Virus record (IMG/VR): IMGVR_UViG_3300037493_007233
Span: 1 to 64,000 of that record
Length of the DNA: 64,000 nt
Direction: 5' to 3' (one strand)
DNA from: a virus
Numbering within the stretch: position 1 is the stretch's first letter; each line of letters begins with the position of its first letter. Made by a program: the position numbers and the translations under genes. The notes below the pieces were generated by a model, which saw only the letters and a program-made list of their open reading frames with translations, ran no database searches and was not told where the DNA came from. Positions 63,810 to 64,000 of this stretch are shown piece after piece.

Positions 63810-64000
63810 CTAAAAAATCCTATAAGCTAAATCATCAGGCAAGCTTTTTCTTCCCCATTTCTCAATCGCAGCCTTGTATTCTGGTTGTTCAAATTCTCTA
63901 TCGATGGCCTGTCGCATTGCCAACCCACCAGCTCTTGTTCCTTCTGGATGCCCGTGCAATGCACCTCCAACGTTAGCCATCCAATCAACACTATTTAAAT
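63810..64000 (-). CDS. RuBisCO-like protein, C-terminal fragment (gene runs off the right edge)
   Basis: The frame visible at the edge ends ...IEKWGRKSLPDDLAYRIF. It contains MANVGGALHGHPEGTRAGGL, the phosphate-binding GG..GHP.G..AG motif of RuBisCO and RuBisCO-like proteins, followed by the MRQAID helix and YKAAIEKWGRK, which matches the end of the large subunit. Only about 62 residues are seen, so a true carboxylase cannot be told from a RuBisCO-like enolase or isomerase. It is the first visible gene of the operon with the GDPD-like and WavE-like genes. Confidence 0.75.
   Translation of the reverse strand, partial: LNSVDWMANVGGALHGHPEGTRAGGLAMRQAIDREFEQPEYKAAIEKWGRKSLPDDLAYRIF

What the first reader, a model, noticed from the sequence alone, without database searches (positions are those of the whole stretch)
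63810..64000. RuBisCO-like protein on a phage, in an operon with GDPD-like and WavE-like genes
The C-terminal GG..GHP.G..AG motif, RQAID helix and AAIEKW end are characteristic. A phage-borne RuBisCO or RuBisCO-like protein would be a notable metabolic gene.
Basis: partly seen in the sequence, partly recalled or inferred. Interest (0 to 1): 0.7.

Follow-up and report, generated by a model that had tools for sequence, protein, structure and literature searches.

The report
Phage RuBisCO-like protein in glycan operon
Many bacterial viruses carry a remodelled cousin of the carbon-fixing enzyme RuBisCO that has lost key residues for fixing CO2 and sits among genes for making sugar building blocks, so viral "RuBisCO" genes of this kind are more likely used to build surface sugars than to fix carbon.

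Summary
The 62-aa fragment at 63810-64000 is the C-terminus of an intact 411-aa gene (63810-65045, minus strand; the record continues past the window) with both RuBisCO domains. It is a RuBisCO-like protein (form IV), not a RuBisCO: the Mg2+/carbamate site (K175, K177, K201, D203, E204) is invariant, but H294, R295, K334, N123, E60, T65 and W66 are replaced in every member examined. It belongs to a well-supported clade (100/100) found in hundreds of uncultivated phage contigs and rarely in bacteria, where it lies in O-antigen/capsule-type loci. Nearly every copy is beside a sugar nucleotidyltransferase, a small cupin and a short GDPD-like gene. Best explanation: a Mg2+-dependent sugar-phosphate isomerase, epimerase or enolase in a nucleotide-sugar pathway for surface glycans. 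In the virus collection searched, form I, II, III and OiaX-type queries found no RuBisCO-family protein outside this clade, so published viral "rbcL" carbon-fixation genes need re-checking. The reaction is inferred. Viral rbcL has been reported before; I found no description of this clade, cassette or role.

The parts
63810..64000 (-). C-terminal part of the RuBisCO-like protein; the whole gene is 411 aa at 63810-65045 of the parent record (same coordinates, beyond the window end). Upstream of it, also outside the window: cupin 65045-65368 (107 aa, TAATG overlap with the RLP start) and sugar nucleotidyltransferase 65349-66101 (250 aa)
63372..63806 (-). short GDPD-like protein, 144 aa, its ATG a few bases after the RLP stop; phrog_34507

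Best explanation
The gene encodes a form IV RuBisCO-like protein of a distinct clade. It keeps the carbamylated-lysine/Mg2+ centre that RuBisCO-family enzymes use to draw a proton from the carbon next to a carbonyl, and part of the phosphate-binding site. It has lost the loop-6 lysine and other residues needed to add CO2. It most likely enolises a phosphorylated ketose or aldose as an isomerase, epimerase or enolase. The neighbouring cupin may carry out a further isomerisation or epimerisation, the nucleotidyltransferase (in some phages fused to a HAD phosphatase) then makes an NDP-sugar, and the methyl- and glycosyltransferases beside it put that sugar on a surface glycan, probably the infected host's LPS or capsule. 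Shown: fold, clade, retained and lost residues, conserved gene cassette, and the same cassette in bacterial surface-polysaccharide loci. Inferred: substrate, reaction, product, and the benefit to the phage.
For: Clade: 21 viral and 6 cellular sequences form one group, support 100/100, stem 1.12 changes per site, grouped with OiaX and MtnW and outside forms I, II and III. Residues: K175, K177, K201, D203, E204, H327, S379, G381, G403, G404 kept in 27/27; E60G, T65N, W66P, N123G, H294Q, R295K, K334Y, G380C in 27/27 (alignments). Constraint: close copies differ by dN 0.08-0.16 with dS saturated. Cassette: of 62 non-redundant viral copies with full context, 59 have the nucleotidyltransferase, 54 the cupin and 51 the GDPD-like gene within 4 genes on the same strand. 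Genes overlap or abut in the window phage. Other neighbours are HAD, DegT aminotransferase, methyltransferases, UDP-GlcNAc 2-epimerase and GDP-mannose dehydratase types. Cellular copies lie in surface-polysaccharide-type loci in SAR11-order genomes and in a Patescibacterium, an alphaproteobacterium and a Crocinitomicaceae MAG. In a divergent viral copy the usual nucleotidyltransferase and cupin are replaced by an unrelated cytidylyltransferase fused to a mannose-6-phosphate-isomerase-type cupin: the same two kinds of domain from different families. Cultured cyanophages carry the nucleotidyltransferase/GDPD-like module (cupin in some) in glycan clusters without the RLP.
Against: No substrate or product is known, and I found no report of an assayed member of this clade. 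Three of six cellular copies lack the cupin nearby, so the pathway may not need it or may differ. The GDPD-like protein, a phosphodiesterase relative, has no obvious place in a simple NDP-sugar route. The grouping nearest to MtnW is weakly supported (81/35) and joins long branches.
Confidence: 0.72

Rival explanations
1. It is a true CO2-fixing RuBisCO that boosts host carbon fixation during infection, as viral rbcL is read in metagenome surveys.
For: K175, K177, the carbamate/metal triad KxDE, H327 and S379 are intact. A viral rbcL (no sequence compared here) was reported active with rbcS in E. coli lysate (PMC12615777).
Against: K334 of loop 6, H294, R295, N123, E60, T65 and W66 are all replaced in 27/27. 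NCBIfam RuBisCO models score it 102-161 bits against cut-offs of 438-497. It groups outside forms I-III. Its neighbours are glycan genes.
Confidence: 0.04
2. It works with the cupin in methylthioadenosine salvage, like the Rhodospirillum/Rhodopseudomonas RLP-cupin pair (5-methylthioribulose-1-P isomerase plus methylsulfurylase) that feeds sulfur salvage and isoprenoids.
For: RLP and cupin genes have neighbouring locus numbers in R. palustris (PMC5893883) and cupin directly upstream of the RLP is the commonest arrangement here.
Against: The nucleotidyltransferase is a more constant partner (59/62) than the cupin (54/62), and three of six cellular copies have a nucleotidyltransferase but no cupin nearby. 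Neighbours are glycan genes, no methionine-salvage gene was seen among the neighbour families examined, and cellular copies lie in surface-polysaccharide loci.
Confidence: 0.08
3. The cassette makes a sugar for the phage itself (virion glycoprotein or DNA modification) rather than for the host surface.
For: Phages can glycosylate their own DNA or particles (general knowledge). A collagen-like repeat protein lies two genes upstream of the nucleotidyltransferase in this record.
Against: The same cassette in bacteria lies in O-antigen/capsule-type loci, and related modules in cyanophages lie in clusters with capsule-type and GT11/GT25/GT61 genes.
Confidence: 0.16

Closest known systems
MtnW / 2,3-diketo-5-methylthiopentyl-1-phosphate enolase (form IV-YkrW RLP; PDB 2zvi, 2oek)
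   Same: RuBisCO fold, K175, K201, D203, E204, S379, G381, G403, G404; K334 lost in both
   Different: Different substitutions (MtnW R295P, H327L, K334S, N123K against R295K, H327 kept, K334Y, N123G); about 25% identity; different pathway and gene context
OiaX, 3-oxo-isoapionate-4-phosphate decarboxylase (NCBIfam NF042437)
   Same: RLP acting on a phosphorylated sugar acid; same side of the tree
   Different: OiaX keeps H294, R295, K334 and loses K177 and H327; 122 bits against a 700-bit cut-off; lies beside a sugar-acid kinase, not a nucleotidyltransferase
DeepYkr RLP plus cupin of the MTA-isoprenoid shunt (R. rubrum, R. palustris; PMC5893883)
   Same: RLP paired with a cupin; isomerase chemistry on a pentulose phosphate
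   Different: Partners here are nucleotidyltransferase, GDPD-like and glycosyltransferase genes; no DeepYkr sequence was available for the tree
Viral 'rbcL' AMGs (Great Salt Lake PMC8506154; landfill PMC12607003; mining soils PMC12615777)
   Same: RuBisCO-family genes on viral contigs; the landfill paper notes one among 'RbcL-like' proteins and reports the function in IMG/VR viruses
   Different: Those papers describe carbon fixation and, in the passages read, no residue analysis or cassette; whether their sequences belong to this clade was not testable here
Cyanophage sugar-nucleotide clusters (S-SM2, Bellamy, DSL-LC03, B23)
   Same: Homologous nucleotidyltransferase and GDPD-like genes, cupin in Bellamy and SynMITS9220M01
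   Different: No RLP; HAD, class II aldolase or GHMP kinase genes occur there

Membership tests
RuBisCO large subunit (forms I, II, III) | RuBisCO N- and C-terminal domains over full length | tested here: met
   Pfam PF00016 6.7e-33, PF02788 3e-5; fold TM 0.85 to form III
RuBisCO large subunit (forms I, II, III) | Carbamylated lysine and metal ligands K201, D203, E204 | tested here: met
   KEDE invariant; carbamylation itself not testable by sequence
RuBisCO large subunit (forms I, II, III) | Residues for carboxylation and RuBP binding: loop-6 K334, H294, R295, N123, E60, T65, W66 | tested here: not met
   All seven replaced in 27/27
RuBisCO large subunit (forms I, II, III) | Groups within forms I-III; passes curated models | tested here: not met
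   Outside them in the tree; 102-161 bits against 438-497
RuBisCO-like protein (form IV) | RuBisCO fold with catalytic residues missing | tested here: met
RuBisCO-like protein (form IV) | Lies with known RLPs in a tree | tested here: met
   Branch holding OiaX-type, MtnW-type and this clade, 100/99
MtnW (IV-YkrW) | Passes TIGR03332 / NF007095 and has MtnW residues | tested here: not met
   109 and 132 bits against 514 and 409; residues differ
OiaX | Passes NF042437 | tested here: not met
   121.6 bits against 700
IV-GOS RLP clade (from ocean metagenomes) | Groups with published IV-GOS sequences | not testable with these tools
   No IV-GOS sequence at hand; GOS paper reports RuBisCO homologues in no known clade (PMC1821046)
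DeepYkr RLP of the MTA-isoprenoid shunt | Groups with R. rubrum RLP and isomerises 5-methylthioribulose-1-P | not tested
   No DeepYkr sequence obtained; only gene context compared
Glycerophosphodiester phosphodiesterase (partner gene) | HRG, E-x-D and H catalytic motif | tested here: met
   H6 R7 G8, E35, D37, H49 invariant; profile match to 7e0v 7e-5
Glycerophosphodiester phosphodiesterase (partner gene) | Full-length GDPD barrel and Pfam GDPD match | tested here: not met
   About 146 aa; no Pfam GDPD match in 23 members; only weak fold matches

The most novel reading that the evidence does not exclude
The RuBisCO scaffold has been recruited, in phages and a few bacterial surface-polysaccharide loci, as a biosynthetic sugar-phosphate isomerase or epimerase for an unknown glycan sugar; and most viral 'rbcL' in metagenome databases is this enzyme, so the carbon-fixation reading of viral rbcL is largely a misannotation.
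Probability: 0.5. Interest if true: 0.75.

Novelty: new variant of a known kind. Interest (0 to 1): 0.62.

Why it matters
Known RuBisCO-like proteins act in sulfur salvage and sugar-acid breakdown; this would be a biosynthetic role in glycan assembly, found mostly in viruses. In the same virus collection, form I and form II query patterns found nothing, and a form III / II-III and an OiaX-type query found four loci, all of this clade, against 243 stretches for this clade. Surveys that score viral rbcL as carbon fixation could therefore be counting a sugar enzyme. The claim is directly testable with one purified protein.

Tried and rejected
Virus-only clade: rejected, four loci in 84,980 genomes and two more genomes of the SAR11 order carry it in non-phage contexts. 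Annotated phages: tblastn against 50,697 GenBank phage records found none. dN/dS: synonymous sites saturated, only one pair gave a ratio (0.04). Fold search with the GDPD-like model (pLDDT 95) gave only weak barrel matches, so its reaction stays open. Promoter scan: fewer matches than chance, uninformative; one strong terminator-like hairpin lies just downstream of the gp32 gene, after the cassette. Literature: no paper found linking an RLP to O-antigen, capsule or nucleotide-sugar genes or using the phrases tried for phage RuBisCO. A portal and terminase check found 14 of 51 records positive for each; most records are fragments, so a lack is not evidence.

Full report
Observation. The window ends inside a minus-strand gene whose last 62 codons read as a RuBisCO C-terminus. 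The fragment alone is below the Pfam cut-off but matches solved RuBisCO and RuBisCO-like chains. The window lies in a 73,646-base virus record that continues to the right, so the gene could be read whole: 411 aa, 63810-65045, no internal stop, both RuBisCO domains, near-full-length alignment to a solved RuBisCO at 1e-36. A model of an 83%-identical relative has mean pLDDT 91.9 and the complete fold, TM 0.85 to archaeal form III.

Is it a RuBisCO? No. A tree of 66 sequences puts 21 viral and 6 cellular copies in one group with 100/100 support and a long stem, on the side of OiaX- and MtnW-type RuBisCO-like proteins and apart from forms I, II and III (reference labels). The exact neighbour is unsure: the join with MtnW has support 81/35 and long branches meet there. 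At the active site (spinach numbering), K175, K177, K201, D203, E204, H327, S379, G381, G403 and G404 are kept in all 27; E60, T65, W66, N123, H294, R295, K334 and G380 are replaced, always by the same residue. K334 is the loop-6 lysine that holds the new carboxylate (established knowledge), so carboxylation is very unlikely while Mg2+-assisted enolisation remains possible. Curated models for RuBisCO, MtnW and OiaX all score it far below their cut-offs.

Spread. The first viral scan kept 80 loci, 48-84% identical; an alignment-based scan found 243 encoding stretches; 66 of the copies fetched are less than 90% identical to each other. None was found in 50,697 GenBank phage records. Fourteen of 51 checked records carry a T4-type portal and fourteen a terminase, including a 518,643-base contig with both. 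In 84,980 bacterial and archaeal genomes four loci were found; profile searches found 3 of 297 genomes in the order of the SAR11 genome, and only the starting genome among 286 and 296 genomes of two other phyla. Bacterial copies branch at the base, with one Patescibacterium copy nested among viral ones, which fits a bacterial origin and later viral spread; the root is by midpoint, so direction is not proven.

Context. In 62 non-redundant viral copies with full flanks, 59 have a sugar nucleotidyltransferase, 54 a small cupin and 51 a short GDPD-like gene within four genes on the same strand. In the window phage the genes overlap or abut: nucleotidyltransferase and cupin overlap, cupin and RLP share TAATG, the GDPD-like ATG lies a few bases after the RLP stop, and GDPD-like and glycosyltransferase-like genes share ATGA. 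The nucleotidyltransferase family matches a solved NDP-sugar pyrophosphorylase at 2e-32 and in some phages is fused to a HAD phosphatase. The cupin family keeps H44, H46 and E51. The GDPD-like family keeps the HRG, E-x-D and H motif but is short, about 146 aa. Nearby are methyltransferases, an aminotransferase, and UDP-GlcNAc 2-epimerase and GDP-mannose dehydratase types.

The bacterial copies sit in similar cassettes inside surface-polysaccharide loci: two SAR11-order genomes, one with gmd, fucose-synthase-like and flippase-like genes nearby, a Patescibacterium region full of glycosyltransferases, an alphaproteobacterial contig with rmlB/rmlA-like, aminotransferase and flippase-like genes, and a Crocinitomicaceae contig (gene names are read from sequence by eye). 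One divergent viral copy has, in place of the usual two genes, an unrelated cytidylyltransferase fused to a mannose-6-phosphate-isomerase-type cupin, which argues that these two activities belong with the RLP. Cultured cyanophages have the nucleotidyltransferase/GDPD-like module without the RLP, in clusters that also hold HAD, class II aldolase, GHMP kinase and GT61 genes.

How it likely works. Inferred: the RLP enolises a sugar phosphate and so isomerises or epimerises it; the product is trimmed by a phosphatase where needed, activated by the nucleotidyltransferase and transferred to a glycan. For a phage the likely gain is altering the host surface, for example against competing phages; virion decoration is possible. 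Against the salvage rival: in R. palustris and R. rubrum an RLP-cupin pair serves methylthioadenosine salvage (PMC5893883), but here the nucleotidyltransferase is the more constant partner and three of six cellular copies lack the cupin.

Relation to published work. Viral rbcL has been reported as a carbon-fixation gene in Great Salt Lake (PMC8506154), landfills and IMG/VR (PMC12607003), mining soils, with activity claimed for one gene co-expressed with rbcS (PMC12615777), and an estuary (PMC13390420). The landfill protein fell among 'RbcL-like' proteins. In the virus collection used here, form I and form II queries found nothing, and a form III / II-III and an OiaX query found four loci, all of which score best with this clade's profile. 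Those scans use short peptide patterns and had no positive control in this collection, and MtnW-type sequences were not scanned for, so they limit but do not exclude other viral RuBisCO-family genes. I could not test whether the published sequences belong here, nor whether the clade equals the IV-GOS group.

Noticed in passing
window 54404-56320 (-): 638-aa protein with a cytidyltransferase-type C-terminus (phrog_395) behind a long N-terminal part that reads by eye like an RNA-ligase domain; possible two-domain nucleotide or RNA-repair enzyme.
   Followed up: partly
window 22410-24002 (-): Nol-like carbamoyltransferase (phrog_1601), another possible glycan- or base-modifying gene on the same phage.
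   Followed up: partly
L003 12796-14214 (-), i.e. record 66795-68213, right of the window: 472-aa protein with a long GTSGTSGSSG collagen-like repeat, between the RuvC-like gene and tail genes.
   Followed up: no
window 47696-49099 (-): DNA polymerase match of only 467 aa, so perhaps a split polymerase gene.
   Followed up: no
L244 2384-3208 (+): Cytidylyltransferase fused to a mannose-6-phosphate-isomerase-type cupin directly behind a divergent RLP on a viral contig.
   Followed up: yes
L239, L240, L241 (cyanophages Bellamy, DSL-LC03, B23): Homologous nucleotidyltransferase and GDPD-like genes in cultured cyanophage glycan clusters, several annotated hypothetical or thymidylyltransferase.
   Followed up: partly
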